Assembly (NCBI GenBank): GCA_960531495.1
Contig: CAUIJY010000075.1
Span: 1,612,001 to 1,676,000 of the forward strand
Reading direction: 5' to 3'
From: Zeus faber
Lineage: Eukaryota > Chordata > Actinopteri > Zeiformes > Zeidae
Length of the DNA stretch: 64,000 nt
Shown: piece after piece, positions 26,991-64,000 of the stretch
Position numbering within the stretch: the stretch's first letter is position 1
Layout of the letters: each line of letters starts with the position of its first letter
Made by a program: the position numbers and the translations under genes
The notes under the pieces: model-generated
What the model was told of the DNA's origin: nothing
Databases searched by the model: none
Seen by the model: the letters and a program-made list of their open reading frames with translations, nothing else

Positions 26991-28053
26991 AACTTTCAAT
27001 TTTTCTATCTTTCAATATTTCTTCCAATCTTTCAATCTTTCTTTTGTTATTTCTTTCAATCTTTCTTTCTTTCAATCTTTCTTTCATCTATCTTTCCATC
27101 TTTCTTTCATTCTTTCTTTCAATCTTTCTTTTTTCAATCTTTCTTGCAATCTTTCTTTCAATTGTTTAATCTATCAATCTTTCTTTCATTCTTTCTTTCA
27201 ATATTTCAATCTTTCAATCTTTCTTTCATTCTTTCTTTCAATCTTTCAATCTTGCTTTCAATCTTTCTTACTTTCAATTTTTCTATCTTTCAATATTTCT
27301 TCCAATCGTTCAATCTTTCTTTCATTATTTCTTTCAATCTTTCTTTCTTTCAATCTTTCTTTCCAACTTTCTTTCAATCTTTCTTTCATTCTTTCTTTCA
27401 ATATTTCTTTTTTCAATCTTTCTTTCATTCTTTCTTTCAATCTTTCTTTCATTCTTTCTTTCAATATTTCTTTCTTTCAATCTTTCTTTCAATCTTTCTT
27501 TCATTCTTTCCTTCAGTCGTTCAATCTTTCTTTCAATCTTTCTTTTTTTCAATCTTTCTTTCAATCTTTCTTTCATCCTTTCTTTCAATCTTTCGTTCAA
27601 TATTTCTTTCAATCTTTCTTACTTTCAATCTTTCTTTGTTTAAATCTTTCTTTCAATCTTTCTTTCAAACTTTCAATCATTATTTCAATCTTTCATTCTT
27701 TCCATCTTTCTTGCAATCTTTCTTTCAATTGTTTAATCTTTCAATGTTTCTTTCATTCTTTCTTTCAGTCTATCAATCTTTTTTTAAATCTTTCTTTCAT
27801 TCTTTCTTTAAATCTTTCTGTCCGTCATTCTTTCTTTCAGTCTTTCTTTCAATCATTCAATCTTTCAATCTTTCTGTCTTTCAATCTTTCTTTCAATCTT
27901 TCTTTCATTCTTTATTTCAATCTTTGTTTCATTTTTTCTTTCAATCTTTCTTTCAATCTTTCTTTCTTTCTTTAAATCTTTCTTTCAATCTGCCTTTCAT
28001 TCTTTCTTTCAGTCTTTCAATCTTTCTTTAAATCTTTCTTTCAATCTTTCTTT

Positions 28054-29122
28054 CAAACTTTCAATCTTTATTTCAAACTTTCAATCTTTATTTCAATCTT
28101 TCAATCTTTCAATCTTTCTTTCAATCTTTCAATTTTTCTTTCATTCTTTCTTTCAATATTTCAATCTTTCATTCTTTCTTTCATTCTTTCTTTAAATCTT
28201 TCAATCTTTCTTTCATTCTTTCTTTCAATCTATCTTACTTTCAATCTTTCTTTCTTTCAATATTTCTTCCAATCGTTCAATCTTTCTTTCATTCTTTCTT
28301 TCAATCTTTATTTTGTTATTTCTTTCAATCTTTCTTTCTTTCCATCTTTCTTTCAATCTTTCTTTTATTCTTTCTTTCAATCTTTCTTTTTTCAATCTTT
28401 CTTGCAATCTTTCTTTCAATTGTTTAATCGTTCAATCTTTCTTTCATTCTTTCTTTCAATCTTTCTTTCATTCTTTCTTTCAATCTTTCTGTCTGTCAAT
28501 CTGTCTTTCAGTCTTTCTTTCAATCATTCAATCTTTCAATCTTTCCTTCAATATTTCTTTCTTTCAATCTTTCTTTCAATCTTTCTTTCAAACTTTCAAT
28601 CTTTATTTCAAACTTTCAATCTTTATTTCAATCTTTCAATCTTTCAATCTTTCTTTCAATCTTTCAATCTTTCTTTCATTCTTTCTTTCAATATTTCAAT
28701 CTTTCATTCTTTCTTTCATTCTTTCTTTAAATCTTTCAATCTTTCTTTCATTCTTTCTTTCAATCTATCTTACTTTCAATCTTTCTTTCTTTCAATATTT
28801 CTTCCAATCGTTCAATCTTTCTTTCATTCTTTCTTTCAATCTTTATTTTGTTATTTCTTTCAATCTTTCTTTCTTTCCATCTTTCTTTCAATCTTTCTTT
28901 TATTCTTTCTTTCAAACTTTCTTTTTTCAATCTTTCTTGCAATCTTTCTTTCAATTGTTTAATCGTTCAATCTTTCTTTCATTCTTTCTTTCAATCTTTC
29001 TTTCATTCTTTCTTTCAATCTTTCTGTCTGTCAATCTGTCTTTCAGTCTTTCTTTCAATCATTCAATCTTTCAATCTTTCCTTCAATATTTCTTTCTTTC
29101 AATCTTTCTTTCAATCTTTCTT
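28054..29122. repeat. XA pair in S0 (535-bp tandem)
   Basis: CAAACTT words at 28054 and 28589 are 535 apart, as are TTATTTTGTTATTTC words at 28312 and 28847. Each unit also carries TTTAATCGTTC and TCTGTCTGTCAATCTGTC. The pair recurs at 48561 (523 apart) and 61526 (535 apart). Confidence 0.8.
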
Positions 29123-30384
29123 TCATTCTTTCCTTCAGTCATTCAATCTTTCTTTCAATCTTTCTTTTTTTCAATCTTTCTTTCAATCTTTCTTTCATCC
29201 TTTCTTTCAATCTTTCGTTCAATATTTCTTTCAATCTTTCTTACTTTCAATCTTTCTTTGTTTAAATCTTTCTTTCAATCTTTCTTTCAAACTTTCAATC
29301 ATTATTTCAATCTTTCATTCTTTCAATCTTTCTTTCAATCTTTCTTTCAATCTTTCAATCTTTTTTTCAATCTTTCTTTCATCCTTTCTTTCAATCTTTC
29401 GTTCAATATTTCTTTCAATCTTTCTTACTTTCAATCTTTCTTTGTTCAAATCTTTCTTTCAATCTTTCTTTCAAACTTTCAATCATTATTTCAATCTTTC
29501 ATTCTTTCCATCTTTCTTGCGATCTTTCTTTCAATTGTTTAATCTTTCAATATTTCTTTCATTCTTTCTTTCAGTCTTTCAATCTTTTTTTCAATCTTTC
29601 TTTCAATCTTTCTTTCAATCTTTCTGTCCGTTATTCTTTCTTTCAGTCTTTCTTTCAATCATTCAATCTTTAATCTTTCTTTCTTTCAATCTTTCTTTCA
29701 ATCTTTCTTTCATTCTTTATTTCAATCTTTGTTTCATTCTTTCTTTCAATCTTTCTTTCAATCTTTCTTTCAATCTTTCTTTCTTTCTTTAAATCTTTCT
29801 TTCAATCTTTCTTTCAAACTTTCAATCATTATTTCAATCTTTCTTTCAATCTTACTTTCAATCTTTCAATCTTTCTTTCATTCTTTCTTTCAATATTTCA
29901 ATCTTTCAATATTTCTTTCATTCTTTCTTGCAATCTTTCAATCTTTCTTTCATTCTTTCTTTCAATCTTTCTTACTTTCAATCTTTCTTTCAATCTGCCT
30001 TTCATTCTTTCTTTCAGTCTTTCAATATTTCTTTAAATCTTTCTTTCAATCTTTCTTTCAAACTTTCAATCTTTATTTCAATATTTCAATCTTTCAATCT
30101 TTCGTTCAATCTTTCAATCTATCTTTCATTCTTTCTTTCAATATTTCAATGTTTCAATCTTTCTTTCATTCTTTATTTAAATCTTTCAATCTTTCTTTCA
30201 TTCTTTCTTTCAATCTATCTTACTTTCAATCTATCTTTCCTTCAATATTTCTTCCAATCGTTCAATCTTTCTTTTGTTATTTCTTTCAATCTTTCTTTCA
30301 ATATTTCTTTCAATCTTTCTTTCTTTAAATCTTTCTTTCAATCTTTCTTTCAATCTTTCAATCTTTCTTTCATTATTTCTTTCA
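29123..30384. repeat. XB stretch in S0
   Basis: Marked by private words TTGCGATC (29518) and CTGTCCGTTATTC (29624), which recur at 50012 and 50119 and again at 62928 and 63012. CAATTG lies at 29532. A one-base difference near 29671 (CTTTAATC here, CTTTTAATC at 50.16 kb) is one of the few length changes that is not a multiple of four. Confidence 0.75.
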
Positions 30385-31338
30385 ATATGTAAATCTTTCA
30401 ATCTTTCTTTCAATCTTTCTTTCTTTCAATCTTTCTTTCAAACTTTCTTTCAATCTTTCTTTCATTCTTTCCTTCAGTCTTTCAATCTTTCTTTCAATCT
30501 TTCTTTCAATCTTTCTTTTTTTCAATCTTTCTTTCAATCTTTCTTTCATTCTTTCTTTCAATCTTTCTTTCAATCTTTCAATCTTTCTTTCAATATTTCT
30601 TTCAATCTTTCTTACTTTCAATCTTTCTTTCTTTAAATCTTTCTTTCAATCTTTCTTTCAAACTTTCAATCATTATTTAAATCTTTCAATCTTTCAATCT
30701 TTCTTTCAATATTTCTTTCAATCTTTCTTTCAATATTTCTTTCAATCTTTCTTTCTTTCAATCTTTCTTTCAATATTTCTTTCATTCCTTCTTTCAATCT
30801 TTCTTTCAATTTTTCTTTCAATCTTTCTTTTTTCAATCTTTCGTTCAATCTTTCTTTCATTTTTTCTTTCAATCTTTCTTACTTTCAATCTTTCTTTCTT
30901 TCATTACTTCTTTCAATCTTTCAATCTTTCTTTCAATCTTTCTTTCATTCTTTCTTTCAGTCTTTCAATCTTTCTTTCAAACTTTCAATCTTTCTTTCAA
31001 TCTTTCAGTCGTTCATTCTTTCTTTAAATCTTTCTTTAAATCTTTCTTTCAAACATTCAATCTTTCTTTCAATCTTTCAATCTTTCAATCTTTCTTTCAA
31101 TCTTTCTTTCAATCTTTCAATATTTCTTTCATTCTATCTTTCAATATTTCAATCTTTCAATCTTCTTTTCATTCTTCTTTCAATCTTTCAATCTTTCTTT
31201 CATTCTTTCTTTCAATCTTTCTTACTTTCAATTTTTCTATCTTTCAATATTTCTTCCAATCTTTCAATCTTTCTTTCTTTAAATCTTTCTTTCAATCTTT
31301 CTTTCAATCTTTCAATCTTTCTTTCATTATTTCTTTCA
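30385..31338. repeat. ~930-bp unit U1 (954 bp)
   Basis: Runs from one ATATGTAAATC tag (30385) to the next (31339). Inside, in order, are TTCCTTCAGTC, a TTTTTTTCAATC run, AATCATTATTTAAATC, TTTTTTCAATCTTTCGTTC, TTCATTACTTC, CAGTCGTTC, TTCATTCTATC, CAATCTTCTTTTCATTC and TTTTTCTATC. Longer than its neighbours partly because an AATATTTC word with its spacer is doubled. Confidence 0.85.
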
Positions 31339-32268
31339 ATATGTAAATCTTTCAATCTTTCTTTCAATCTTTCTTTCTTTCAATCTTTCTTTCAATCTTT
31401 CTTCTAATCTTTCTTTCATTCTTTCCTTCAGTATTTCAATCTTTCTTTCAATCTTTCTTTCAATCTTTCTTTTTTTCAATCTTTCTTTCAATCTTTCTTT
31501 CATTCTTTCTTTCAATCTTTCTTTCAATCTTTCAATCTTTCTTTCAATATTTCTTTCAATCTTTCTTACTTTCAATCTTTCTTTCTTTAAATCTTTCTTT
31601 CAATCTTTCTTTCAAACTTTCAATCATTATTTAAATCTTTCAATCTTTCAATCTTTCTTTCAATATTTCTTTCAATCTTTCTTTCTTTCAATCTTTCTTC
31701 CAATATTTCTTTCATTCCTTCTTTCAATCTTTCTTTCAATTTTTCTTTCAATCTTTCTTTTTTCAATCTTTCGTTCAATCTTTCTTTCATTCTTTCTTTC
31801 AATCTTTCTTACTTTCAATCTTTCTTTCTTTCATTACTTCTTTCAATCTTTCAATCTTTCTTTCAATCTTTCTTTCATTCTTTCTTTCAGTCTTTCAATC
31901 TTTCTTTCAAACTTTCAATCTTTCTTTCAATCTTTCAGTCGTTCATTCTTTCTTTAAATCTTTCTTTAAATCTTTCTTTCAAACATTCAATCTTTCTTTC
32001 AATCTTTCAATCTTTCAATCTTTCTTTCAATCTTTCTTTCAATCTTTCAATATTTCTTTCATTCTATCTTTCAATATTTCAATCTTTCAATCTTCTTTTC
32101 ATTCTTCTTTCAATCTTTCAATCTTTCTTTCATTCTTTCTTTCAATCTTTCTTACTTTCAATTTTTCTATCTTTCAATATTTCTTCCAATCTTTCAATCT
32201 TTCTTTCTTTAAATCTTTCTTTCAATCTTTCTTTCAATCTTTCAATCTTTCTTTCATTATTTCTTTCA
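31339..32268. repeat. ~930-bp unit U2 (930 bp)
   Basis: Same tag order as U1. Private changes are TTCTTCTAATC and TTCTTCCAATATTTC. Both recur in the unit at 51811, which shows that the two are corresponding copies. Confidence 0.85.
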
Positions 32269-33186
32269 ATATGTAAATCTTTCAATCTTTCTTTCAATCT
32301 TTCTTTCTTTCAATCTTTCTTTCAATCTTTCTTTCAATCTTTCTTTCATTCTTTCCTTCAGTCTTTCAATCTTTCTTTCAATCTTTCTTTCAATCTTTTT
32401 TTTTTTCAATCTTTCTTTCAATCTTTCTTTCATTCTTTCTTTCAATCTTTCTTTCAATCTTTCAATCTTTCTTTCAATATTTCTTTCAATCTTTCTTACT
32501 TTCAATCTTTCTTTCTTTGAATCTTTCTTTCAAACTTTCAATCATTATTTAAATCTTTCAATCTTTCAATCTTTCTTTCAATATTTCTTTCAATCTTTCT
32601 TTCTTTCAATCTTTCTTTCAATATTTCTTTCATTCCTTCTTTCAATCTTTCTTTCAATTTTTCTTTCAATCTTTCTTTTTTCAATCTTTCGTTCAATCTT
32701 TCTTTCATTCTTTCTTTCAATCTTTCTTACTTTCAATCTTTCTTTCTTTCATTACTTCTTTCAATCTTTCAATCTTTCTTTCAATCTTTCTTTCATTCTT
32801 TCTTTCAGTTTTTCAATCTTTCTTTCAAACTTTCAATCTTTCTTTCAATCTTTCAGTCGTTCAATCTTTCTTTAAATCTTTCTTTAAATCTTTCTTTCAA
32901 ACATTCAATCTTTCTTTCAATCTTTCAATCTTTCAATCTTTTTTTCAATCTTTCTTTCAATCTTTCAATATTTCTTTCATTCTATCTTTCAATATTTCAA
33001 TCTTTCAATCTTCTTTTCATTCTTCTTTCAATCTTTCAATCTTTCTTTCATTCTTTCTTTCAATCTTTCTTACTTTCAATTTTTCTATCTTTCAATATTT
33101 CTTCCAATCTTTCAATCTTTCTTTCTTTAAATCTTTCTTTCAATCTTTCTTTCAATCTTTCAATCTTTCTTTCATTATTTCTTTCA
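32269..33186. repeat. ~930-bp unit U3 (918 bp)
   Basis: Same tag order. Private changes include CTTTGAATC (32517) and CAGTCGTTCAATC. It corresponds to the unit at 52733 and, in its right part, to 35838-36664 at an offset of 3,478. Confidence 0.85.
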
Positions 33187-33958
33187 ATATGTAAATCTTT
33201 CAATCTTTCTTTCAATCTTTCTTTCTTTCAATCTTTCTTTCAATCTTTCTTTCAATCTTTCTTTCATTCTTTCTTTCAGTCTTTCAATCTTTCTTTCAAT
33301 CTTTCTTTCAATCTTTCTTTTTTTCAATCTTTCTTTCATTCTTTCTTTCAATCTTTCTTTCAATCTTTCAATCTTTCTTTCAATATTTCTTTCAATCTTT
33401 CTTACTTTCAATCTTTATTTCTTTAAATCTTTCTTTCAATCTTTCTTTCAAACTTTCAATCATTATTTAAATCTTTCAATCTTTCAATCTTTCTTTCAAT
33501 ATTTCTTTCAATCTTTCTTTCTTTCAATCTTTCTTTCAATATTTCTTTCATTCCTTCTTTCAATCTTTCTTTCAATTTTTCTTTCAATCTTTCTTTTTTC
33601 AATCTTTCGTTCAATCTTTCTTTCATTCTTTCTTTCAATCTTTCTTACTTTCAATCTTTCTTTCTTTCATTACTTCTTTCAATCTTTCAATCTTTCTTTC
33701 AATCTTTCTTTCATTCTTTCTTTCAGTCTTTCAATCTTTCTTTCAAACATTCAATCTTTCTTTCAATCTTTCAATCTTTCAATCTTTCTTTCAATCTTTC
33801 AATATTTCTTTCATTCTATCTTTCAATATTTCAATCTTTCAATCTTCTTTTCATTCTTCTTTCAATCTTTCAATCTTTCTTTCATTCTTTCTTTCAATCT
33901 TTCTTACTTTCAATTTTTCTATCTTTCAATATTTCTTCCAATCTTTCAATCTTTCTTT
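33187..33958. repeat. ~930-bp unit U4, cut at 772 bp
   Basis: Follows the unit order but lacks the CAGTCGTTC stretch and ends where CTTTTGTTATTTC replaces CTTTCTTTAAATC. The same cut appears at 37436 (772 bp), 41310 and 54410 (760 bp), so the junction is inherited, not independent. Confidence 0.85.
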
Positions 33959-35837
33959 TGTTATTTCTTTCAATCTTTCTTTCTTTCAATCTTTCTTTCA
34001 TCTATCTTTCAATCTTTCTTTAATTCTTTCTTTCAATCTTTCTTTTTTCAATCTTTCTTGCAATCTTTCTTTCAATTGTTTAATCTATCAATCTTTCTTT
34101 CATTCTTTCTTTCAATATTTCAATCTTCCAATCTTTCTTTCATTCTTTCTTTCAATCTTTCAATCTTGCTTTCATTCTTTCTTACTTTCAATTTTTCCAT
34201 CTTTCAATATTTCTTCCAATCGTTCAATCTTTATTTCATTATTTCTTTCAATCTTTCTTTCTTTCAATCTTTCTTTCCAGCTTTTTTCAATCTTTCTTTC
34301 ATTCTTTCTTTCAATCTTTCAATATTTCTTTCATTCATTCTTTCAATCTTTCTTACTTTCAATTTTTCTATCTTTCATTATTTCTTTCAATCTTTTTTTT
34401 GTTATTTCTTTCAATCTTTATTTCTTTCAATCTTGCTTTCCATCTTTCTTGCAATCTTTCTTTCAATTGTTTAATCTTTCAATGTTTCTTTCATTCTTTC
34501 TTTCAGTCTTTCAATCTTTTTTTCATACTTTCATTCTTTCATTCAATCTTTCTGTCCGTCATTCTTTCTTTCAGTCTTTCTTTCAATCATTCAATCTTTC
34601 TTTCTTTCAATCTTTCTTTCAATCTTTGTTTCATTCTTTCTTTCAATCTTTCTTTCAATCTTTCTTTCTTTCTTTAAATCTTTCTTTCAATCTTTCTTTC
34701 AAACTTTCAATCTTTCTTTCAAACTTTCAATCTTTCTTTCAATCTTTCTTTCAATCTTTCAATCTTTCTTTCATTCTTTCTTTCAATATTTCAATTTTTC
34801 AATATTTCTTTCATTCTTTCTTGCAATCTTTCAATCTTTCTTTCATTCTTTCTTTCAATCTATCTTACTTTCAATCTTACTTTCTTTCATTCTTTCTTTC
34901 AATCTTTCTTTTGTTATTTCTTTCAATCTTTCTTTCTTTCCATCTTTCTTTCAATCTTTCTTTTTTCAATCTTTCTTGCAATCTTTCTTCCAATTGTTTA
35001 ATCTTTCAATCTTTCTTTCATTCTTTCTTTCAATCTTTCTGTCTGTCAATCTTTCTTTCAGTCTTTCTTTCAATCATTCAATCTTTCAATCTTTCCTTCA
35101 ATATTTCTTTCTTTCAATCTTTCTTTCAATCTTTCTTTCATTCTTTCCTTCAGTCGTTCAATCTTTATTTCAATCTTTCTTTTTTCAATCTTTCTTTCAA
35201 TCTTTCTTTCAATCTTTCTTTCATTCTTTTCTTCAGTCGTTCAATCTTTCTTTCAATCTTTCTTTTTTTCAATCTTTCTTTCAATCTTTCTTTCATCCTT
35301 TCTTTCAATCTTTCGTTCAATATTTCTTTCAATCTTTCTTACTTTCAATCTTTCTTTGTTTAAATCTTTCATTCAATCTTTCTTTCAAACTTTCAATCAT
35401 TATTTCAATCTTTCATTCTTTCCATCTTTCTTGCAATCTTTCTTTCAATTATTTAATCTTTCAATGTTTCTTTCATTCTTTCTTTCAGTCTTTCTGTCCG
35501 TCATTCTTTCTTTCAGTCTTTCTTTCTTTCAATCTTTCTTTAAATCTTTCTTTCATTCTTTATTTCAATCTTTGTTTCATTCTTTCATTCAATCTTTCTT
35601 TTAATCTTTCTTTCAATCTTTCTTTCTTTCTTTAAATATTTCTTTCAATCTTTCTTTCAAACTTTCAATCTTTATTTCAATCTTTCAATCTTTCTTTCAA
35701 TATTTCAATCTTTCTTTCATTCTTTCTTTCATTATTTCAATCTTTCAATATTTCTTTCATTCTTTCTTTCAATCTTTCTTACTTTCAATTTTTCTATCTT
35801 TCAATATTTCTTCCAATCTTTCAATCTTTCTTTTGTT

Positions 35838-36664
35838 ATTCTTTCAATCTTTCTTTCTTTCAATCTTTCTTTCCATCTTTTTTTCAATCTTTCTTTCAAT
35901 CTTTCTTTCATTCTTTCTTTCAATCTTTCTTTCAATCTTTCAATCTTTCTTTCAATATTTCTTTCAATCTTTCTTACTTTCAATCTTTCTTTCTTTCAAT
36001 CTTTCTTTCAAACTTTCAATCATTATTTAAATCTTTCAATCTTTCAATCTTTCTTTCAATATTTCTTTCAATCTTTCTTTCTTTCAATCTTTCTTTCAAT
36101 ATTTCTTTCATTCCTTCTTTCAATCTTTCTTTCAATTTTTCTTTCAATCTTTCTTTTTTCAATCTTTCGTTCAATCTTTCTTTCATTCTTTCTTTCAATC
36201 TTTCTTACTTTCAATCTTTCTTTCTTTCATTACTTCTTTCAATCTTTCAATCTTTCTTTCAATCTTTCTTTCATTCTTTCTTTCAGTTTTTCAATCTTTC
36301 TTTCAAACTTTCAATCTTTCTTTCAATCTTTCAGTCGTTCAATCTTTCTTTAAATCTTTCTTTAAATCTTTCTTTCAAACATTCAATCTTTCTTTCAATC
36401 TTTCAATCTTTCAATCTTTTTTTCAATCTTTCTTTCAATCTTTCAATATTTCTTTCATTCTATCTTTCAATATTTCAATCTTTCAATCTTCTTTTCATTC
36501 TTCTTTCAATCTTTCAATCTTTCTTTCATTCTTTCTTTCAATCTTTCTTACTTTCAATTTTTCTATCTTTCAATATTTCTTCCAATCTTTCAATCTTTCT
36601 TTCTTTAAATCTTTCTTTCAATCTTTCTTTCAATCTTTCAATCTTTCTTTCATTATTTCTTTCA
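35838..36664. repeat. ~930-bp unit in S1, left end joined to Y
   Basis: Entered from TTTTGTTATTC (35834) and TTTCCATCTTTTTTTC, after which it follows U3 at an offset of 3,478 from about 36.0 kb. The first ~100 bases of a normal unit are replaced. Confidence 0.75.
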
Positions 36665-37436
36665 ATATGTAAATCTTTCAATCTTTCTTTCAATCTTTCT
36701 TTCTTTCAATCTTTCTTTCAATCTTTCTTTCAATCTTTCTTTCATTCTTTCTATCAGTCTTTCAATCTTTCTTTCAATCTTTCTTTCAATCTTTCTTTTT
36801 TTCAATCTTTCTTTCATTCTTTCTTTCAATCTTTCTTTCAATCTTTCAATCTTTCTTTCAATATTTCTTTCAATCTTTCTTACTTTCAATCTTTATTTCT
36901 TTAAATCTTTCTTTCAATCTTTCTTTCAAACTTTCAATCATTATTTAAATCTTTCAATCTTTCAATCTTTCTTTCAATATTTCTTTCAATCTTTCTTTCT
37001 TTCAATCTTTCTTTCAATATTTCTTTCATTCCTTCTTTCAATCTTTCTTTCAATTTTTCTTTCAATCTTTCTTTTTTCAATCTTTCGTTCAATCTTTCTT
37101 TCATTCTTTCTTTCAATCTTTCTTACTTTCAATCTTTCTTTCTTTCATTACTTCTTTCAATCTTTCAATCTTTCTTTCAATCTTTCTTTCATTCTTTCTT
37201 TCAGTCTTTCAATCTTTCTTTCAAACATTCAATCTTTCTTTCAATCTTTCAATCTTTCAATCTTTCTTTCAATCTTTCAATATTTCTTTCATTCTATCTT
37301 TCAATATTTCAATCTTTCAATCTTCTTTTCATTCTTCTTTCAATCTTTCAATCTTTCTTTCATTCTTTCTTTCAATCTTTCTTACTTTCAATTTTTCTAT
37401 CTTTCAATATTTCTTCCAATCTTTCAATCTTTCTTT
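36665..37436. repeat. ~930-bp unit in S1, cut at 772 bp
   Basis: ATATGTAAATC at 36665; equals U4 (33187-33958) in length and order, with small changes such as TTTCTATCAGTC. Confidence 0.85.
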
Positions 37437-48150: not shown

Positions 48151-48560
48151 ATCTTTCTTTCAAACTTTCAATCATTATTTCAATCTTTCATTCTTTCCAT
48201 CTTTCTTGCAATCTTTCTTTCAATTGTTTAATCTTTCAATGTTTCTTTCATTCTTTCTTTCAGTCTATCAATCTTTTTTTCAATCTTTCTTTCATTCTTT
48301 CTTTAAATCTTTCTGTCCGTCATTCTTTCTTTCAGTCTTTCTTTCAATCATTTAATCTTTCAATCTTTCTGTCTTTCAATCTTTCTTTCAATCTTTCTTT
48401 CATTCTTTATTTCAATCTTTGTTTCATTTTTTCTTTCAATCTTTCTTTCAATCTTTCTTTCAATCTTTCTTTCTTTCTTTAAATCTTTCTTTCAATCTGC
48501 CTTTCATTCTTTCTTTCAGTCTTTCAATCTTTCTTTAAATCTTTCTTTCAATCTTTCTTT
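48151..48560. repeat. W-to-X bridge in S3
   Basis: Contains TTGCAATC, CAATTGTTTAATC, TCTGTCCGTCATTC, TTTAATCTTTC and AATCTGCCTTTC. A similar bridge precedes XA at 27.65-28.05 kb and at 61.13-61.52 kb. Confidence 0.65.
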
Positions 48561-53650: not shown

Positions 53651-54410
53651 ATATGTAAATCTTTCAATCTTTCTTTCAATCTTTCTTTCTTTCAATCTTT
53701 CTTTCAATCTTTCTTTCATTCTTTCTTTCAGTCTTTCAATCTTTCTTTCAATCTTTCTTTCAATCTTTCTTTTTTTCAATCTTTCTTTCATTCTTTCTTT
53801 CAATCTTTCAATCTTTCTTTCAATATTTCTTTCAATCTTTCTTACTTTCAATCTTTATTTCTTTAAATCTTTCTTTCAATCTTTCTTTCAAACTTTCAAT
53901 CATTATTTAAATCTTTCAATCTTTCAATCTTTCTTTCAATATTTCTTTCAATCTTTCTTTCTTTCAATCTTTCTTTCAATATTTCTTTCATTCCTTCTTT
54001 CAATCTTTCTTTCAATTTTTCTTTCAATCTTTCTTTTTTCAATCTTTAGTTCAATCTTTCTTTCATTCTTTCTTTCAATCTTTCTTACTTTCAATCTTTC
54101 TTTCTTTCATTACTTCTTTCAATCTTTCAATCTTTCTTTCAATCTTTCTTTCATTCTTTCTTTCAGTCTTTCAATCTTTCTTTCAAACATTCAATCTTTC
54201 TTTCAATCTTTCAATCTTTCAATCTTTCTTTCAATCTTTCTTTCAATCTTTCAATATTTCTTTCATTCTATCTTTCAATATTTCAATCTTTCAATCTTCT
54301 TTTCATTCTTCTTTCAATCTTTCAATCTTTCTTTCATTCTTTCTTTCAATCTTTCTTACTTTCAATTTTTCTATCTTTCAATATTTCTTCCAATCTTTCA
54401 ATCTTTCTTT
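53651..54410. repeat. ~930-bp unit in S3, 4 of 4, cut at 760 bp
   Basis: Counterpart of U4, 12 bases shorter overall, ending at the same TGTTATTTC junction. A private CTTTAGTTC replaces CTTTCGTTC near 54047. Confidence 0.85.
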
Positions 54411-56159
54411 TGTTATTTCTTTCAATCTTTCTTTCTTTCAATCTTTCTTTCATCTATCTTTCAATCTTTCTTTAATTCTTTCTTTCAATCTTTCTTTTTT
54501 CAATCTTTCTTGCAATCTTTCTTTCAATTGTTTAATCTATCAATCTTTCTTTCATTCTTTCTTTCAATATTTCAATCTTTCAATCTTTCTTTCATTCTTT
54601 CTTTCAATCTTTCAATCTTGCTTTCATTCTTTCTTACTTTCAATTTTTCCATCTTTCAATATTTCTTCCAATCGTTCAATCTTTATTTCATTATTTCTTT
54701 CAATCTTTCTTTCTTTCAATCTTTCTTTCCAGCTTTTTTCAATCTTTCTTTCATTCTTTCTTTCAATCTTTCAATATTTCTTTCATTCATTCTTTCAATC
54801 TTTCTTACTTTCAATTTTTCTATCTTTCATTATTTCTTTCAATCTTTTTTTTGTTATTTCTTTCAATCTTTATTTCTTTCAATCTTGCTTTCCATCTTTC
54901 TTGCAATCTTTCTTTCAATTGTTTAATCTTTCAATGTTTCTTTCATTCTTTCTTTCAGTCTTTCAATCTTTTTTTCATACTTTCTTTCATTCTTTCATTC
55001 AATCTTTCTGTCCGTCATTCTTTCTTTCAGTCTTTCTTTCAATCATTCAATCTTTCTTTCTTTCAATCTTTCTTTCAATCTTTGTTTCATTCTTTCTTTC
55101 AATCTTTCTTTCAATCTTTCTTTCTTTCTTTAAATCTTTCTTTCAATCTTTCTTTCAAACTTTCAATCTTTCTTTCAAACTTTCAATCTTTCTTTCAATC
55201 TTTCTTTCAATCTTTCAATCTTTCTTTCATTCTTTCTTTCAATATTTCAATCTTTCAATATTTCTTTCATTCTTTCTTGCAATCTTTCAATATTTCTTTC
55301 ATTCTTTCTTTCAATCTATCTTACTTTCTTTCATTCTTTCTTTCAATCTTTCTTTTGTTATTTCTTTCAATCTTTCTTTCTTTCCATCTTTCTTTCAATC
55401 TTTCTTCTTTCAATCTTTCTTGCAATCTTTCTTCCAATTGTTTAATCTTTCAATCTTTCTTTCATTCTTTCTTTCAATCTTTCTGTCTGTCAATCTTTCT
55501 TTCAGTCTTTCTTTCAATCATTCAATCTTTCAATCTTTCCTTCAATATTTCTTTCTTTCAATCTTTCTTTCAATCTTTCTTTCATTCTTTCCTTCAGTCG
55601 TTCAATCTTTATTTCAATCTTTCTTTTTTTCAATCTTTCTTTCAATCTTTCTTTCATCCTTTCTTTCAATCTTTCGTTCAATATTTCTTTCAATCTTTCT
55701 TACTTTCAATCTTTCTTTGTTTAAATCTTTCATTCAATCTTTCTTTCAAACTTTCAATCATTATTTCAATCTTTCATTCTTTCCATCTTTCTTGCAATCT
55801 TTCTTTCAATTATTTAATCTTTCAATGTTTCTTTCATTCTTTCTTTCAGTCTTTCTGTCCGTCATTCTTTCTTTCAGTCTTTCTTTCTTTCAATCTTTCT
55901 TTAAATCTTTCTTTCATTCTTTATTTCAATCTTTGTTTCATTCTTTCATTCAATCTTTCTTTTAATCTTTCTTTCAATCTTTCTTTCTTTCTTTAAATAT
56001 TTCTTTCAATCTTTCTTTCAAACTTTCAATCTTTATTTCAATCTTTCAATCTTTCTTTCAATATTTCAATCTTTCTTTCATTCTTTCTTTCATTATTTCA
56101 ATCTTTCAATATTTCTTTCATTCTTTCTTTCAATCTTTCTTACTTTCAATCTTTCTTTC
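54411..56159. repeat. Y block in S4
   Basis: About 83 bases shorter than the S3 Y block. One loss is near 55320 (TTACTTTCTTTC without the AATCTTAC word) and another near 55620, where a TTTTTTCAATC word and its repeat are merged. A TTCTTCTTTCAATC word near 55404 replaces TTCTTTTTTCAATC. Confidence 0.78.
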
Positions 56160-57724
56160 AATCTGCCATTCATTCCTTCTTTCAGTCTTTCAATCTTTCT
56201 TTAAATCTTTTTTTCAATCTTTCTTTCAAACTTTCAATCTTTATTTCAATCTTTCAATCTTTCAATCTTTCTTTCAATCTTTCAATCTTTCTTTCATTCT
56301 TTCTTTCAATATTTCAATCTTTCAATCTTTCTTTCATTCTTTCTTTAAATCTTTCAATCTTTCTTTCATTCTTTCTTTCAATCTATCTTACTTTCAATCT
56401 TTCTTTCCGTCAATATTTCTTCCAATCGTTCAATCTTTCTTTCATTCTTTCTTTCAATCTTTCTTTTGTTATTTCTTTCAATCTTTCTTTCTTTCCATCT
56501 TTCTTTCAATCTTTCTTTAATTCTTTCTTTCAATCTTTCTTTTTTCAATCTTTCTTGCAATCTTCCTTTCAATTGGTTAATCTTTCAATCTTTCTTTCAT
56601 TCTTTCTTTCAATCTTTCTTTCATTCTTTCTTTCAGTCTTTCTTTCAATCATTCAATCTTTCAATCTTTCTTTCTTTCAATCTTTCTTTAAATCTTTCTT
56701 TCATTCTTTATTTCAATCTTTGTTTCATTCTTTCTTTCAATCTTTCTTTCAATCTTTCTTTCAATCTTTCTTTCTTTAAATCTTTCTTTCAATCTTTCTT
56801 TCAAACTTTCAATGTTTATTTCAATCTTTCAATCTTTCTTTCAATCTTTCTTTCAATCTTTCAATCTTTCTTTCATTCTTTCTTTCAATATTTCAATCTT
56901 TCAATATTTCTTTCATTCTTTCTTGCAATCTTTCAATCTTTCTTTCATTCTTTCTTTCAATCTTTCTTACTTTCAATCTTTCTTTCAATCTGCCATTCAT
57001 TCTTTCTTTCAGTCTTTCAATCTTTCTTTAAATCTTTCTTTCAATCTTTCTTTCAAACTTTCAATCTTTATTTCAATCTTTCAATCTTTCAATCTTTCTT
57101 TCAATCTTTCAATCTTTCTTTCATTCTTTCTTTCAGTATTTCAATCTTTCAATCTTTCTTTCATTCTTTCTTTAAATCTTTCAATCTTTCTTTCATTCTT
57201 TCTTTCAATCTATCTTACTTTCAATCTTTCTTTCCGTCAATATTTCTTCCAATCGTTCAATCTTTCTTTCATTCTTTCTTTCAATCTTTCTCTTGTTATT
57301 TCTTTCAATCTTTCTTTCTTTCCATCTTTCTTTCAATCTTTCTTTAATTCTTTCTTTCAATCTTTCTTTTTTCAATCTTTCTTGCAATCTTTCTTTCAAT
57401 TGTTTAATCTTTCAATCTTTCTTTCATTCTTTCTTTCAATCTTTCTTTCATTCTTTCTTTCAATCTTTCTTTCTGTCAATCTTTCTTTCAGTCTTTCTTT
57501 CAATCATTCAATCTTTCAATTTTTCCTTCAATATTTCTTTCTTTCAATCTTTCTTTCAATCTTTCTTTCAATCTTTCTTTTTTCAATCTTTCTTTCAATC
57601 TTTCTTTCAATCTTTCGTTCAATATTTCTTTCAATCTTTCTTACTTTCAATCTATCTTTGTTTAAATCTTTCTTTCATCCTTTCTTTCAATCTTTCATTT
57701 TTTCAATCTTTCTTTCAATCTTTC
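56160..57724. repeat. Z pair in S4 (827-bp tandem)
   Basis: AATCTGCCATTC at 56160 and 56987, 827 apart for the third time. CAATTGGTTAATC at 56570 in the first unit. One private change, CATTCCTTC, directly follows the first tag. Confidence 0.85.
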
Positions 57725-58281
57725 ATTCTTTCTTTCAATCTTTCAATCGTTCTTTCTTTCAATATTTCTTTCAATCTTTCTTACTTTCAATCTATCTTTG
57801 TTTAAATCTTTCTTTCAATCTTTCTTTCAAACTTCAATCATTATTTCAATATTTAATTCTTTCAATCTTTCTTTCAATCTTTCTTTCAATCTTTCAATCT
57901 TTCTTTCAATCTTTCTTTCATCCTTTTTTCAATCTTTCGTTCAATATGTCTTTCAATCTTTCTTACGTTCAATCTTTCTTTGTTTAAATCTTTCTTTCAA
58001 TCTTTCTTTCAATCTTTCTTTAATTCTTTCCTTCAGTCGTTCAATCTTTCTTTCAATGTTTCTTTTTTTCAATCTTTCTTTCAATCTTTCTTTCATCCTT
58101 TCTTTCAATCTTTCGTTCAATATTTCTTTCAATCTTTCTTACTTTCAATCTTTCTTTGTTTAAATCATTCTTTCAATCTTTCTTTCAATCTTTCTTTCAA
58201 TCTTTCAATCTTTCTTTCATCCTTTCTTTCAATCTTTCGTTCAATATTTCTTTCAATCTTTCTTACTTTCAATCTTTCTTT
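57725..58281. repeat. W lead-in in S4
   Basis: Same private words as 44708-45276 (contracted CAAACTTCAATC near 57830, CAATATGTCTTTC, TTCTTACGTTC near 57960). Confidence 0.8.
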
Positions 58282-59753
58282 GTTTAAATCTTTCTTTCAA
58301 TCTTTCTTTCAAACTTTCAATCATTATTTCAATCTTTCATTCTTTCCATCTTTCTTGCAATCTTTCTTTCAATTGTTTAATCTTTCAATCTTTTTTTCAA
58401 TCTTTCTCTCATTCTTTCTTTCAATCTTTCTGTCCGTCATTCTTTCTTTCAGTCTTTCTTTCAATCATTCAATCTTTCAATCTTTCTTTCTTTCAATCTT
58501 TCTTTTAATCTTTCTTTCATTCTTTATTTCAATCTTTGTTTCATTCTTTCTTTCAATCTTTCTTTCAATCTTTCTTTCAATCTTTCTTTCTTTCTTTCAA
58601 ACTTTCAATCTTTATTTCAATCTTTCTTTCAATCTTTCTTTCAATCTTTCAATCTTTCTTTCAAACTTTCAATCTTTATTTCAATCTTTCAATCTTTCAA
58701 TCTTTCTTTCAATCTTTCAATCTTTCTTTCATTCTTTCTTTCAATATTTCAATCTTTCAATATTTCTTTCATTCTTTCTTGCAATCTTTCTTTCAATCTG
58801 CCTTTCATTTTTTCTTTCAGTCTTTCAATCTTTCTTTAAATCTTTCTTTCAATCTTTCTTTCAAACTTTCAATTTTTATTTCAATCTTTCAATCTTTCAA
58901 TCTTTCTTTCAATCTTTCAATCTTTCTTTCATTCTTTCTTTCAATATTTCAATCTTTCTTTCAATCTTTCTTTCATCCTTTCTTTCAATCTTTCGTTCAA
59001 TATTTCTTTCAATCTTTCTTACTTTCAATCTTTCTTTGTTTAAATCATTCTTTCAATCTTTCTTTCAATCTTTCTTTCAATCTTTCTTTCAATTTTTCTT
59101 TCATCCTTTCTTCCAATCTTTCGTTCAATATTTCTTTCAATCTTTCTTTCTTTCAATCTTTCTTTGTTTAAATCTTTCTTTCAATCTTTCTTTCAAACTT
59201 TCAATCATTATTTCAATCTTTCATTCTTTCCATCTTTCTTGCAATCTTTCTTTCAATTGTTTAATCTTTCAATGTTTCTTTCATTCTTTCTTTCAGTCTA
59301 TCAATCTTTTTTTCAATCTTTCTTTCATTCTTTCTTTCAATCTTTCTTTCAAACTTTCAATCTTTATTTCAATCTTTCAATCTTTCTTTCAATCTTTCAA
59401 TCTTTCTTTCAATATTTCAATCTTTCAATCTTTCTTTCATTCATTCTTTAAATCTTTCAATCTTTCTTTCATTCTTTCTTTCAATCTATCTTACTTTCAA
59501 TCTATCTTTCTTTCAATATTTCTTCCAATCGTTCAATCTTTCTTTCATTCTTTCTTTCAATCTTTCTTTTGTTAATTCTTTCAATCTTTCTTTCAATATT
59601 TCTTTCAATCTTTCTTTCTTTAAATCTTTCTTTCAATCTTTCTTTCAATCTTTCTTTCAATCTTTCAATCTTTCTTTCAATCTTTCTTTCATCCTTTCTT
59701 TCAATCTTTCGTTCAATATTTCTTTCAATCTTTCTTACTTTCAATCTTTCTTT
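58282..59753. repeat. W unit 1 in S4 (1,472 bp)
   Basis: GTTTAAATC at 58282 and 59754. Twenty bases shorter than its S3 counterpart through small losses of TTTCAATC-type steps. It keeps AATCTGCCTTTC, where S3 unit 1 has AATCTGCATTTC. Confidence 0.82.
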
Positions 59754-61128
59754 GTTTAAATCTTTCTTTCAATCTTTCTTTCAAACTTTCAATCATTATT
59801 TCAATCTTTCATTCTTTCCATCTTTCTTGCAATCTTTCTTTCAATTGTTTAATCTTTCAATCTTTTTTTCAATCTTTCTCTCATTCTTTCTTTCAATCTT
59901 TCTGTCCGTCATTCTTTCTTTCAGTCTTTCTTTCAATCATTCAATCTTTCAATCTTTCTTTCTTTCAATCTTTCTTTTAATCTTTCTTTCATTCTTTATT
60001 TCAATCTTTGTTTCATTCTTTCTTTCAATCTTTCTTTCAATCTTTCTTTCAATCTTTCTTTCTTTCTTTCAAACTTTCAATCTTTATTTCAATCTTTCTT
60101 TCAATCTTTCTTTCAATCTTTCAATCTTTCTTTCAAACTTTCAATCTTTATTTCAATCTTTCAATCTTTCAATCTTTCTTTCAATCTTACAATCTTTCTT
60201 TCATTCTTTCTTTCAATATTTCAATCTTTCAATATTTCTTTCATTCTTTCTTGCAATCTTTCTTTCAATCTGCCTTTCATTTTTTCTTTCAGTCTTTCAA
60301 TCTTTCTTTAAATCTTTCTTTCAATCTTTCTTTCAAACTTTCAATTTTTATTTCAATCTTTCAATCTTTCAATCTTTCTTTCAATCTTTCAATCTTTCTT
60401 TCATTCTTTCTTTCAATATTTCAATCTTTCAATATTTCTTTCAATCTTTCTTTCATCCTTTCTTTCAATCTTTCGTTCAATATTTCTTTCAATCTTTCTT
60501 ACTTTCAATCTTTCTTTGTTTAAATCATTCTTTCAATCTTTCTTTCAATCTTTCTTTCAATCTTTCTTTCAATTTTTCTTTCATCCTTTCTTCCAATCTT
60601 TCGTTCAATATTTCTTTCAATCTTTCTTTCTTTCAATCTTTCTTTGTTTAAATCTTTCTTTCAATCTTTCTTTCAAACTTTCAATCATTATTTCAATCTT
60701 TCATTCTTTCCATCTTTCTTGCAATCTTTCTTTCAATTGTTTAATCTTTCAATGTTTCTTTCATTCTTTCTTTCAGTCTATCAATCTTTTTTTCAATCTT
60801 TCTTTCATTCTTTCTTTCAATCTTTCTTTCAAACTTTCAATCTTTATTTCAATCTTTCAATCTTTCTTTCAATCTTTCAATCTTTCTTTCATTCTTTCTT
60901 TCAATATTTCAATCTTTCAATCTTTCTTTCATTCATTCTTTAAATCTTTCAATCTTTCTTTCATTCTTTCTTTCAATCTATCTTACTTTCAATCTATCTT
61001 TCTTTCAATATTTCTTCCAATCGTTCAATCTTTCTTTCATTCTTTCTTTCAATCTTTCTTTTGTTAATTCTTTCAATCTTTCTTTCAATATTTCTTTCAA
61101 TCTTTCTTTCTTTAAATCTTTCTTTCAA
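59754..61128. repeat. W unit 2 in S4
   Basis: Tracks S3 W unit 2 at an offset of 12,985, then 12,977. Private changes include TTTCAATCTTACAATC near 60187 and CTTTCAATATTTC near 60430. Confidence 0.8.
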
Positions 61129-62548
61129 TCTTTCTTTCAAACTTTCAATCATTATTTCAATCTTTCATTCTTTCCATCTTTCTTGCAATCTTTCTTTCAA
61201 TTGTTTAATCTTTCAATGTTTCTTTCATTCTTTCTTTCAGTCTATCAATCTTTTTTTCAATCTTTCTTTCATTCTTTCTTTAAATCTTTCTGTCCGTCAT
61301 TCTTTCTTTCAGTCTTTCTTTCAATCATTTAATCTTTCAATCTTTCTGTCTTTCAATCTTTCTTTCAATCTTTCTTTCATTCTTTATTTCAATCTTTGTT
61401 TCATTTTTTCTTTCAATCTTTCTTTCAATCTTTCTTTCTTTCTTTAAATCTTTCTTTCAATCTGCCTTTCATTCTTTCTTTCAGTCTTTCAATCTTTCTT
61501 TAAATCTTTCTTTCAATCTTTCTTTCAAACTTTCAATCTTTATTTCAAACTTTCAATCTTTATTTCAATCTTTCAATCTTTCAATCTTTCTTTCAATCTT
61601 TCAATTTTTCTTTCATTCTTTCTTTCAATATTTCAATCTTTCATTCTTTCTTTCATTCTTTCTTTAAATCTTTCAATCTTTCTTTCATTCTTTCTTTCAA
61701 TCTATCTTACTTTCAATCTTTCTTTCTTTCAATATTTCTTCCAATCGTTCAATCTTTCTTTCATTCTTTCTTTCAATCTTTATTTTGTTATTTCTTTCAA
61801 TCTTTCTTTCTTTCCATCTTTCTTTCAATCTTTCTTTTATTCTTTCTTTCAATCTTTCTTTTTTCAATCTTTCTTGCAATCTTTCTTTCAATTGTTTAAT
61901 CGTTCAATCTTTCTTTCATTCTTTCTTTCAATCTTTCTTTCATTCTTTCTTTCAATCTTTCTGTCTGTCAATCTGTCTTTCAGTCTTTCTTTCAATCATT
62001 CAATCTTTCAATCTTTCCTTCAATATTTCTTTCTTTCAATCTTTCTTTCAATCTTTCTTTCAAACTTTCAATCTTTATTTCAAACTTTCAATCTTTATTT
62101 CAATCTTTCAATCTTTCAATCTTTCTTTCAATCTTTCAATCTTTCTTTCATTCTTTCTTTCAATATTTCAATCTTTCATTCTTTCTTTCATTCTTTCTTT
62201 AAATCTTTCAATCTTTCTTTCATTCTTTCTTTCAATCTATCTTACTTTCAATCTTTCTTTCTTTCAATATTTCTTCCAATCGTTCAATCTTTCTTTCATT
62301 CTTTCTTTCAATATTTATTTTGTTATTTCTTTCAATCTTTCTTTCTTTCCATCTTTCTTTCAATCTTTCTTTTATTCTTTCTTTCAATCTTTCTTTTTTC
62401 AATCTTTCTTGCAATCTTTCTTTCAATTGTTTAATCGTTCAATCTTTCTTTCATTCTTTCTTTCAATCTTTCTTTCATTCTTTCTTTCAATCTTTCTGTC
62501 TGTCAATCTGTCTTTCAGTCTTTCTTTCAATCATTCAATCTTTCAATC
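61129..62548. repeat. Bridge and XA pair in S4
   Basis: CAAACTT at 61526 and 62061 restore the 535-bp spacing. The second XA unit is cut short near 62548: the TTCCTTCAATATTTC end seen in S0 and S3 is missing, and the sequence goes directly to a TTTTTTTCAATC run. Confidence 0.75.
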
Positions 62549-63773
62549 TTTCTTTCAATCTTTCTTTTTTTCAATCTTTCTTTCAATCTTTCTTTCATCC
62601 TTTCTTTCAATCTTTCGTTCAATATTTCTTTCAATCTTTCTTACTTTCAATCTTTCTTTGTTTAAATCTTTCTTTCAATCTTTCTTTCAAACTTTCAATC
62701 ATTATTTCAAACTTTCATTCTTTCAATCTTTCTTTCAATCTTTCTTTCAATCTTTCAATCTTTTTTTCAATCTTTCTTTCATCCTTTCTTTCAATCTTTC
62801 GTTCAATATTTCTTTCAATCTTTCTTACTTTCAATCTTTCTTTGTTTAAATCTTTCTTTCAATCTTTCTTTCAAACTTTCAATCATTATTTCAATCTTTC
62901 ATTCTTTCCATCTTTCTTGCGATCTTTCTTTCAATTGTTTAATCTTTCAATATTTCTTTCATTCTTTCTTTCAGTCTTTCAATCTTTTTTTCAATCTTTC
63001 TTTCAATCTTTCTGTCCGTTATTCTTTCTTTCAGTCTTTCTTTCAATCATTCAATCTTTTAATCTTTCTTTCTTTCAATCTTTCTTTCAATCTTTCTTTC
63101 ATTCTTTATTTCAATCTTTGTTTCATTCTTTCTTTCAATCTTTCTTTCAATCTTTCTTTCAATCTTTCTTTCTTTCTTTAAATCTTTCTTTCAATCTTTC
63201 TTTCAAACTTTCAATCATTATTTCAATCTTTCTTTCAATCTTACTTTCAATCTTTCAATCTTTCTTTCATTCTTTCTTTCAATATTTCAATCTTTCAATA
63301 TTTCTTTCATTCTTTCTTGCAATCTTTCAATCTTTCTTTCATTCTTTCTTTCAATCTTTCTTACTTTCAATCTTTCTTTCAATCTGCCTTTCATTCTTTC
63401 TTTCAGTCTTTCAATATTTCTTTAAATCTTTCTTTCAATCTTTCTTTCAAACTTTCAATCTTTATTTCAATATTTCAATCTTTTAATCTTTCGTTCAATC
63501 TTTCAATCTATCTTTCATTCTTTCTTTCAATATTTCAATGTTTCAATCTTTCTTTCATTCTTTATTTAAATCTTTCAATCTTTCTTTCATTCTTTCTTTC
63601 AATCTATCTTACTTTCAATCTATCTTTCCTTCAATATTTCTTCCAATCGTTCAATCTTTCTTTTGTTATTTCTTTCAATCTTTCTTTCAATATTTCTTTC
63701 AATCTTTCTTTCTTTAAATCTTTCTTTCAATCTTTCTTTCAATCTTTCAATCTTTCTTTCATTATTTCTTTCA
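62549..63773. repeat. XB stretch in S4
   Basis: TTGCGATC at 62928 and CTGTCCGTTATTC at 63012 match S0 and S3. It is shorter than in S3 (offset 12,916 at TTGCGATC, 12,893 at CTGTCCGTTATTC). Confidence 0.75.
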
Positions 63774-64000
63774 ATATGTAAATCTTTCAATCTTTCTTTC
63801 AATCTTTCTTTCTTTCAATCTTTCTTTCAAACTTTCTTTCAATCTTTCTTTCATTCTTTCCTTCAGTCTTTCAATCTTTCTTTCAATCTATCTTTCAATC
63901 TTTCTTTTTTTCAATCTTTCTTTCAATCTTTCTTTCATTCTTTCTTTCAATCTTTCTTTCAATCTTTCAATCTTTCTTTCAATATTTCTTTCAATCTTTC
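63774..64000. repeat. ~930-bp unit in S4, cut by the window end
   Basis: ATATGTAAATC at 63774 is followed by the start of a ~930-bp unit, so the array continues past the window. A private CTATC word occurs near 63889. Confidence 0.8.

What the first reader, a model, noticed from the sequence alone, without database searches (positions are those of the whole stretch)
27045..64000. Nested higher-order array with segments of 6.9, 3.5, 3.9 and 13.1 kb sharing one junction
TGTTATTTC preceded by TTCCAATCTTTCAATC opens segments at 27045, 33959, 37437, 41311 and 54411. The last two repeat a Y-Z-W-X order with shared private variants (TTCTTACGTTC, CAATTGGTTAATC, TTGCGATC). Smaller segments look like deletion or recombination products of the large one. 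A 13-kb higher-order unit made from a 4-base word would be a striking form of satellite organisation.
Basis: seen in the sequence. Interest (0 to 1): 0.8.

Follow-up and report, generated by a model that had tools for sequence, protein, structure and literature searches.

The report
Nested repeats in fish macrosatellite
A 71-kb block of a simple DNA repeat, from what looks like a fish genome, holds recent 13-kb duplications and shortened copies of them, and the block is itself one compartment of a much larger composite repeat of roughly 130 kb found near the ends of several large contigs, a layout that resembles the heterochromatic caps of ape chromosomes.

Summary
The five junctions, segment lengths (6.9, 3.5, 3.9, 13.1 kb) and variants are real. 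The 13,100-b unit U (41288-54387) repeats from 54388 at 99.76% identity, against 82-83% for two unrelated pairs. The second copy is cut at 66312, where the TTTC/AATC block ends, so no 13-kb period runs on. The 3.5- and 3.9-kb segments are U with large internal gaps. The segment at 27045 is not a unit start; a partial copy enters U near U6858. A second pair of U starts, 14.0 kb apart, lies 1.0 Mb upstream, and the neighbouring block has its own 12.4-kb duplication: 13 kb looks like a local, recent duplication scale, not the array's period. The larger repeat is a composite unit (about 27-kb retroelement-bearing cassette, TTTC/AATC block, 196/208-b satellite) with median spacing 134 kb. Its cassette marker occurs 282 times; all 100 listed copies lie within 2.65 Mb of a contig end. 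The cassette-to-TTTC junction is shared between contigs; this block's end is unique. Adjacent cassettes are 99.7% identical while the satellite beside them falls to near background. Closest known layout: spacer-and-satellite caps of African ape chromosomes. Assembly error cannot be excluded without reads.

The parts
1..64000 (+). TTTC/AATC satellite block; the whole window is inside it (block runs about -5148..66312 in window-based coordinates; the cassette, the 196/208-b satellite and the next block lie outside the window and are described in the full report)
   Evidence: 858 G in 64000 bases; 96.5% of TC-terminated words have a length divisible by 4; CTTTCAATC 2124 times and its reverse complement 0 times in the window
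27650..33935 (+). partial copy of U (about U6858-13100)
   Evidence: 27660-33958 vs 48150-54410 = 6222 matches, 9 mismatches (99.86%)
33936..37413 (+). 3,478-b segment: U1-1846, an 86-b join, then U11575-end; about 9.7 kb of U absent
37414..41287 (+). 3,874-b segment: U1-3420 joined to about the last 0.47 kb of U; about 9.2 kb of U absent
41288..54387 (+). full 13,100-b unit U
54388..64000 (+). second copy of U; continues beyond the window to 66312 where another satellite cuts it (11.9 kb present)
45151..48164 (+). 1.5-kb tandem pair inside U (45151-46664 and 46643-48164; 99.87%); also present at 58168-61141
50790..54411 (+). 0.82-0.96-kb tandem sub-repeats forming the 3' part of U; also at 30306-33959

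Best explanation
The window lies in the simple-satellite compartment of a composite macrosatellite. Shown: in the 264 kb read, a unit is a cassette of about 27 kb (retroelement pieces, no host gene recognised), a TTTC/AATC block (71 kb and 46 kb in the two blocks read whole), then 196/208-b satellite; markers for the cassette and for its junction into the TTTC block recur together near the ends of at least nine large contigs. Shown: within a block the sequence consists of slightly changed 4-, 8- and 12-b words, 0.8-1.5-kb tandem sub-repeats, and segments of 3.5-13 kb that are 99.8% alike. Inferred: blocks turn over faster than the cassettes by repeated out-of-register exchange (unequal sister-chromatid exchange, or template switching at a broken fork) between near-identical sub-repeats, yielding tandem gains such as U-U and losses such as the 3.5- and 3.9-kb segments; whole composite units are copied within and between chromosomes by recombination at the larger scale. 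The 13-kb unit is therefore a recent, regional duplication product, not a fixed period maintained for function.
For: Nested near-identical segments with internal-deletion structure. Gaps between the two U copies: 14 of 15 a multiple of 4, nine of 12 b, as slippage in a 12-b word would give. The adjacent block made its own 12.4-kb duplication after a retroelement insertion, the 2,542-b insert being identical in both copies. Cassettes of adjacent units are 99.73% identical over 29,094 b (a 7.5-kb subset 7495 of 7501), yet past the shared 5' junction the first 500 b are 96.2% alike and the next fifteen 500-b steps lie between 80.3% and 90.8%, against 81.7-83.0% for two unrelated pairs. 5' junction marker: 264 genome hits; it follows 82 of 100 listed cassette markers, at about 4.9 kb (4), 6.7-6.8 kb or 7.2-7.35 kb, with one each at 6.95 and 8.07 kb, against a mean of 4.1 (maximum 10) in 200 random placements. 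The window's 3' block end has 1 hit at up to 3 mismatches. A shared insertion shows whole-unit spread: the insert marker lies 1.58-1.72 kb after 14 of 14 listed junctions on C2, 2 of 4 on C1 and 1 of 12 on C4.
Against: No reads, so copy number inside blocks is unverified; long near-identical arrays are easily mis-assembled. A pair of U starts 1 Mb away (13,981 b), the neighbour's 12,391-b duplication and TTCTTACGTTC-context spacings of 13.3-13.6 kb (3 on C22, 1 on C14, of 34 spacings under 30 kb that range from 1.6 to 21 kb; 93 of the 100 listed places were used, C66 and C78 were left out and would add one of 2.1 kb) could hint at a preferred 12-14-kb step that simple unequal exchange does not predict. 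The unit is not strictly regular: cassette spacing quartiles 112-166 kb, 24 of 87 spacings at 160 kb or more, 10 at 50-90 kb, 5 near 12 kb; 18 of 100 listed cassette markers lack the junction marker; orientation switches on C4, C8 and C10. The shared insertion is seen at that distance after 0 of 7 listed junctions on C5 and 0 of 63 on C3, C7, C8, C10 and C11, so that subtype is limited to three contigs among those listed. That the small segments are losses from U rather than precursors of U is inferred.
Confidence: 0.72

Rival explanations
1. A true 13-kb higher-order repeat: the TTTC/AATC array's basic amplified unit is about 13 kb, and the shorter segments are its deletion products.
For: A full and an 11.9-kb copy in tandem at 99.76% plus partial copies; a second pair of U starts 13,981 b apart with the same marker order about 1.0 Mb upstream (324 of 324 and 241 of 243 b identical to the U start); 13.3-13.6-kb marker spacings on C14 and C22.
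Against: The period stops at the block end; the neighbouring block is unrelated at this scale; the 111-b U start has 37 exact genome hits with irregular spacing; the 458 b before the second upstream start match the end of U at only 92.7% (409 of 441).
Confidence: 0.12
2. Assembly artefact: haplotypes or repeat copies placed in tandem, or reads mis-threaded through a near-identical array, created the apparent segments.
For: Duplication sizes of 12-14 kb are similar to typical long accurate reads (recalled); identities of 99.76-99.82% could be allelic differences; the window is in a separate 2.38-Mb contig.
Against: Two different internal joins (in the 3.5- and 3.9-kb segments) beside full copies; other blocks show their own nested copies and further U starts. 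None of this replaces reads.
Confidence: 0.13
3. Circle-mediated amplification: segments of 12-14 kb leave as circular DNA and reinsert, giving tandem pairs of a preferred size.
For: Similar sizes in separate places: 13.1 kb and 12.4 kb in neighbouring blocks, 14.0 kb about 1 Mb away.
Against: Other U-start spacings (3.5, 3.9, 7.0, 8.5, 16.5, 24.9 kb) fit a broad distribution; no data on circles.
Confidence: 0.1
4. Selected function: the satellite (or its transcript) or the cassette is kept for chromosome-end or centromere function, and the 13-kb unit is the functional module.
For: Position near contig ends and a conserved 5' junction.
Against: No Rfam family at gathering score in the 8 stretches searched; of 27 cassette ORFs searched in Pfam only retroelement-type domains passed cut-off; block interiors are not conserved between adjacent units.
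Confidence: 0.05

Closest known systems
Subterminal heterochromatic caps of chimpanzee, bonobo and gorilla (pCht satellite with segmental-duplication spacers; PMC12154684 abstract and passages, PMC12058530 passages)
   Same: Long arrays of a short satellite interrupted by hundreds of similar copies of one spacer of about 30 kb (32-34 kb there, about 27 kb here), near the ends of many chromosomes or contigs, with signs of exchange between non-homologous chromosomes.
   Different: Here the short satellite is a TTTC/AATC word, the two blocks read whole are shorter (46 and 71 kb vs means of 341-398 kb), a second 196/208-b satellite belongs to the unit, the spacer carries retroelements, and neither a telomere beyond the array nor methylation was seen.
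Human satellites 2 and 3 (HSat2,3), including DYZ1 on the Y (PMC4022460 passages; PMC2588610 abstract and section 6)
   Same: Degenerate simple-sequence satellite whose diverged copies form kilobase higher-order repeats: 1.77, 3.36, 3.6 and 5.8 kb.
   Different: Word and lineage differ; the unit here is longer (13.1 kb), and only a doublet with partial copies was found, not long regular runs.
Human megasatellites/macrosatellites built with transposable elements (PMC2588610 abstract)
   Same: Tandem units that carry interspersed transposable elements, spread over several chromosomes, attributed by the authors to unequal crossing over.
   Different: [quoted passage not shown] the unit here is about ten times longer and composite.
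Mouse chromosome 1 homogeneously staining region (Sp100-rs; HEX; PMC13042054 passages)
   Same: Hundreds of copies of a unit of the order of 100 kb (at least 800 copies over more than 100 Mb).
   Different: One locus, with genes and biased transmission; here many contig ends, no host gene recognised and no transmission data.

Membership tests
Simple-sequence satellite with higher-order repeats (as HSat2,3) | array of a degenerate short word | tested here: met
   12-b/4-b word over the whole window
Simple-sequence satellite with higher-order repeats (as HSat2,3) | near-identical kilobase units against a diverged background | tested here: met
   99.76% vs 81.7% and 83.0%
Simple-sequence satellite with higher-order repeats (as HSat2,3) | regular tandem run of the unit (three or more) | tested here: not met
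   one full and one 11.9-kb copy plus partial ones, irregular spacing; most blocks of the genome were not read
HSat2/HSat3 family itself | CATTC/GAATG-derived sequence | tested here: not met
   words are TTTC, AATC, ATTC in 4-b register
Spacer-and-satellite subterminal cap (ape type) | one spacer of about 30 kb repeated hundreds of times among satellite blocks | tested here: met
   282 cassette-marker hits, 264 junction-marker hits; only two cassettes were read and compared over their length
Spacer-and-satellite subterminal cap (ape type) | location next to telomeres | tested here: inconclusive
   C1, C3 and C7 bear telomere repeat at or near the end opposite the array; the sequenced ends of C1 and C3 stop inside the satellite
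Spacer-and-satellite subterminal cap (ape type) | homology to pCht or the ape spacers | not tested
   no ape sequence was compared by a tool
Spacer-and-satellite subterminal cap (ape type) | hypomethylated spacers, heterochromatic satellite | not testable with these tools
   no methylation or chromatin data
Ribosomal DNA with a long spacer | 18S/5.8S/28S or 5S genes in the unit | tested here: not met
   0 Rfam hits at gathering score in 80 kb (8 of the 20 stretches, covering all of the second cassette and all but about 4 kb of the first)
Protein-coding macrosatellite | conserved host gene in the unit | tested here: inconclusive
   27 ORFs searched (22 of the 36 of at least 85 aa outside the main retroelement parts, and 5 inside them), only retroelement-type domains over cut-off; small exons could be missed

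The most novel reading that the evidence does not exclude
A vertebrate lineage far from apes has independently evolved the spacer-and-satellite design of ape chromosome caps: about 280 copies of a retroelement-bearing cassette drive exchange between non-homologous chromosome ends, while the simple satellite between them acts as a fast internal growth zone with a fixed 5' border, a free 3' end and a preferred duplication step of 12-14 kb. A fixed start with a variable end and a preferred step would point to a directional process, such as repeated fork breakage and template switching starting at the cassette border, rather than symmetric unequal crossing over.
Probability: 0.27. Interest if true: 0.78.

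Novelty: new variant of a known kind. Interest (0 to 1): 0.55.

Why it matters
Composite units of this kind show how heterochromatin spreads between non-homologous chromosomes. Here two clocks sit side by side: cassettes that are 99.7% identical and satellite interiors that are near background similarity. That makes it possible to measure which part of a macrosatellite is homogenised by whole-unit exchange and which part turns over locally. If the resemblance to ape subterminal caps holds (position, methylation), it would be a case of convergence and would make the proposed role of spacers in ectopic exchange testable in a non-primate. The 13-kb nesting itself is a modest extension of what is known for HSat2/3.

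Tried and rejected
Self-BLAST of the array was useless: low complexity merges everything at about 80%; exact-match chaining replaced it. Long ORFs in the window (eight of 615-830 aa, stop to stop) were set aside as a by-product of a stop-poor repeat. rDNA was rejected. A host gene in the cassette was looked for and not found (four matches below Pfam's cut-off, E 0.036-0.076, to unrelated families were taken as chance). The claim that 13 kb is the genome-wide unit was rejected. The claim that the variants are private was rejected for two of three. Literature searches for this satellite or for fish macro/megasatellites listed no paper whose title or start of abstract describes this repeat: 5 of 5 listed; 20 of 84; 15 of 204; 15 of 49; 1 of 1; 1 of 1; the library holds open-licence papers only.

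The first comparison of anchor flanks crashed after L005; L006-L008 were done. The last six alignment windows (37.8-71.3%) reflect the insert in the neighbouring block and were not used. In one search printed ORF coordinates are 1 too high; searches use corrected ones. The identity that one search gave for the second upstream U start was taken at a wrong offset; one search replaces it.
Full report
WHAT WAS CHECKED. The window is C82:1612001-1676000 of an unnamed 803-Mb assembly in 153 contigs; C82 is 2,378,538 b. Window coordinates below are genome position minus 1612000, also where they are negative or above 64000. The genome has a RAG1 gene, so it is a jawed vertebrate; the nearest solved chain is 3jbw, zebrafish by recall, so a fish is likely.

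THE OBSERVATION. TTTC, AATC and ATTC make up 78% of TC-terminated words in the block, and 96.5% of such words have a length divisible by 4. The array has one orientation throughout the window (CTTTCAATC 2124, reverse complement 0).

ANATOMY OF THE NESTING. Exact-match chains and alignments give the following. U = 41288-54387. Its second copy, 54388-66312, is 99.76% identical over the aligned part (11702 matches, 28 mismatches, 15 gaps) and stops where the block stops. 33936-37413 is U1-1846 plus U11575-end; 37414-41287 is U1-3420 plus about the last 0.47 kb of U; 27650-33935 is about U6858-end. About 0.2 kb at 27022 echoes U1-192, but over 1.85 kb the 27022 segment is only 84.9-85.0% like two U starts. 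Around the same 32-b anchor on other contigs, the right flank of the five C1 loci and of the C3 locus matches 27022 (92.5-93.5%) better than any U start (at most 88.0%); the left flank does so for 4 of 5 C1 loci and not for C3; the two C2 loci favour 27022 slightly on both sides. So the anchor looks old and family-wide, and the U form of it younger (inference). Inside U lie 1.5-kb and 0.8-0.96-kb tandem sub-repeats. Two unrelated control pairs give 81.7% and 83.0%.

DOES IT CONTINUE? Twelve 10-kb stretches downstream and eight upstream were read. The block ends at 66312 against a 196/206/208-b satellite arranged in 404/612-b higher-order repeats (66320 to about 93000). A new TTTC/AATC block runs from 119964 to 166396; its longest chain with 1-66312 is 919 matched bases, while it holds a duplication of its own at 12,391 b (126223-134842 vs 138614-147237; 8592 matches, 16 mismatches) that includes a 2,542-b insert identical in both copies. 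The insert's 611-aa frame has endonuclease/exonuclease domains of the kind found in non-LTR elements. The 111-b U start occurs 37 times in the genome, 14 of them on C82, with very uneven spacing. One pair, at C82:632177 (324 of 324 b identical to U) and C82:646158 (241 of 243), is 13,981 b apart and shows the same order start, GGTTAATC, TTGCGATC, start, GGTTAATC. Against a full match, the 458 b before the second start are 92.7% like the end of U. So the order does return, but a megabase away.

THE LARGER UNIT. The 29,094 b before the window's block (-34227..-5148, C82:1577773-1606852) and before the next block (90824-119900, C82:1702824-1731900) are 99.73% identical; about 2 kb of this is 206/208-b satellite. 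A 46-b marker in it has 282 hits at up to 2 mismatches (107 forward, 175 reverse; pattern read backwards: 0). Only the first 100 are listed, on nine contigs; all 100 lie within 2.65 Mb of a contig end. Same-strand neighbours (87 pairs) have a median spacing of 134 kb, quartiles 112 and 166 kb; 5 of 87 are about 12.05 kb (on C3 and C11), 10 are 50-90 kb and 24 are 160 kb or more. The product of 282 and the median gives about 38 Mb, 4.7% of the assembly, a rough figure. The TTTC/AATC part, scaled from 24,368 exact hits of a 32-mer, is about 14 Mb; the densities of other stretches would give about 11-23 Mb.

A FIXED START AND A FREE END. A 44-b marker at the border from cassette to TTTC block has 264 hits. 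Of the 100 listed cassette markers, 82 are followed by it in the same orientation, mostly near 6.75 or 7.3 kb, four near 4.9 kb; 18 are not; 200 random placements give a mean of 4.1 and a maximum of 10. The window's own block end has 1 hit at up to 3 mismatches, and the three block ends read here differ; no other block end was searched. On C2 all 14 listed junctions are followed by the insert marker at 1.58-1.72 kb; C1 shows this for 2 of 4 and C4 for 1 of 12, with two more on C4 at 2.3 kb. C5 (0 of 7) and C3, C7, C8, C10 and C11 (0 of 63) do not show it. So units with this insert were multiplied on C2 and shared with C1 and C4. The same element also has copies far from the arrays.

TWO SPEEDS. 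Between neighbouring units a 7.5-kb part of the cassette differs at 6 of 7501 sites, while the first 500 b of the TTTC block are 96.2% alike and the next fifteen 500-b steps are 80.3-90.8%, not far above unrelated stretches. Either block interiors turn over by local duplication and deletion much faster than cassettes, or cassettes are homogenised by exchange that does not carry the blocks along. The nested segments in the window are traces of the first process.

POSITION. C3 and C7 begin with telomere repeat and C1 has it from about base 2,501 (its first 300 bases read N); the array lies at the other end of all three, and the sequenced ends of C1 and C3 stop inside the satellite. C2, C4 and C11 begin in satellite; the first 300 b of C8, C10 and C82 and the last 300 b of C2 show neither satellite nor telomere repeat. 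The markers point outwards, towards the nearby contig end, for all listed copies on C1, C2, C3, C7 and C11 and for 10 of 11 on C8; C4 and C10 are mixed and C5 runs inwards. Against a simple polarity, the last 300 b of C3 and the first 300 b of C11 carry the satellite in the opposite orientation to the listed units there. Whether the missing end is a centromere or a telomere cannot be told.

CONTENT. Of 27 cassette ORFs searched in Pfam, those with domains over cut-off gave RNase H, integrase core and zinc-binding, zinc knuckle, retrotransposon gag, DUF4939, reverse transcriptase and MLV-type integrase C-terminus; a protease match stayed just under cut-off. No RNA family reached its gathering score in 8 of the 20 stretches.

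COMPARISON. HSat2/3 show that simple-sequence satellites form kilobase higher-order repeats (PMC4022460, passages; PMC2588610, abstract and section 6). African ape caps combine a 32-b satellite with 32-34-kb spacers in 400-700 copies and signs of ectopic exchange between chromosomes (PMC12154684, abstract and passages; PMC12058530, passages). Human acrocentric short arms exchange sequence between non-homologues (PMC10172130, passages). The great-tit short-arm expansion (PMC12786263, outline and abstract) and the mouse HSR (PMC13042054, passages) are other large amplifications. The present array is like the ape caps in layout; membership in any of these families is not claimed.

VERDICT. Real and striking nesting, interpreted one level too low: the 13-kb unit is a local duplication within one compartment of a composite repeat of roughly 130 kb. 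The main weakness is the lack of reads.

Noticed in passing
C82:1577773-1606852 (window -34227..-5148): The first cassette copy carries retrovirus-like ORF pieces on the + strand and gag- and RT-like pieces on the - strand; described only.
   Followed up: partly
window-based 66320-93000, -71486..-32050, 166403-184000: The 196/208-b satellite changes orientation inside each stretch (about 3-10 kb one way, then the other way), a macro-dyad arrangement.
   Followed up: no
window-based -68235..-58644: A T/G-rich 95/154-b satellite of about 10 kb sits inside the 208-b satellite of one unit; no such row appears for the next stretch, and the third was read only in part.
   Followed up: no
G000:C3 and C11: Five cassette-marker pairs 12,047-12,057 b apart (2 on C3, 3 on C11), suggesting one duplication inside the cassette that was then shared between chromosomes.
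   Followed up: no
window-based 153960-157560: A third insert of about 3.5 kb, different in sequence from the other two, interrupts the neighbouring TTTC block.
   Followed up: no
window 4002-14428, 19882-26650: The first part of the window holds its own nested duplications (for example 21205-23874 vs 23916-26650, 4906-7519 vs 6272-8731).
   Followed up: partly
G000:C5:17052-300968: On C5 the 5' junction marker occurs as pairs 104 b apart at 3 of 4 listed places, perhaps a C5 subtype of the unit.
   Followed up: no
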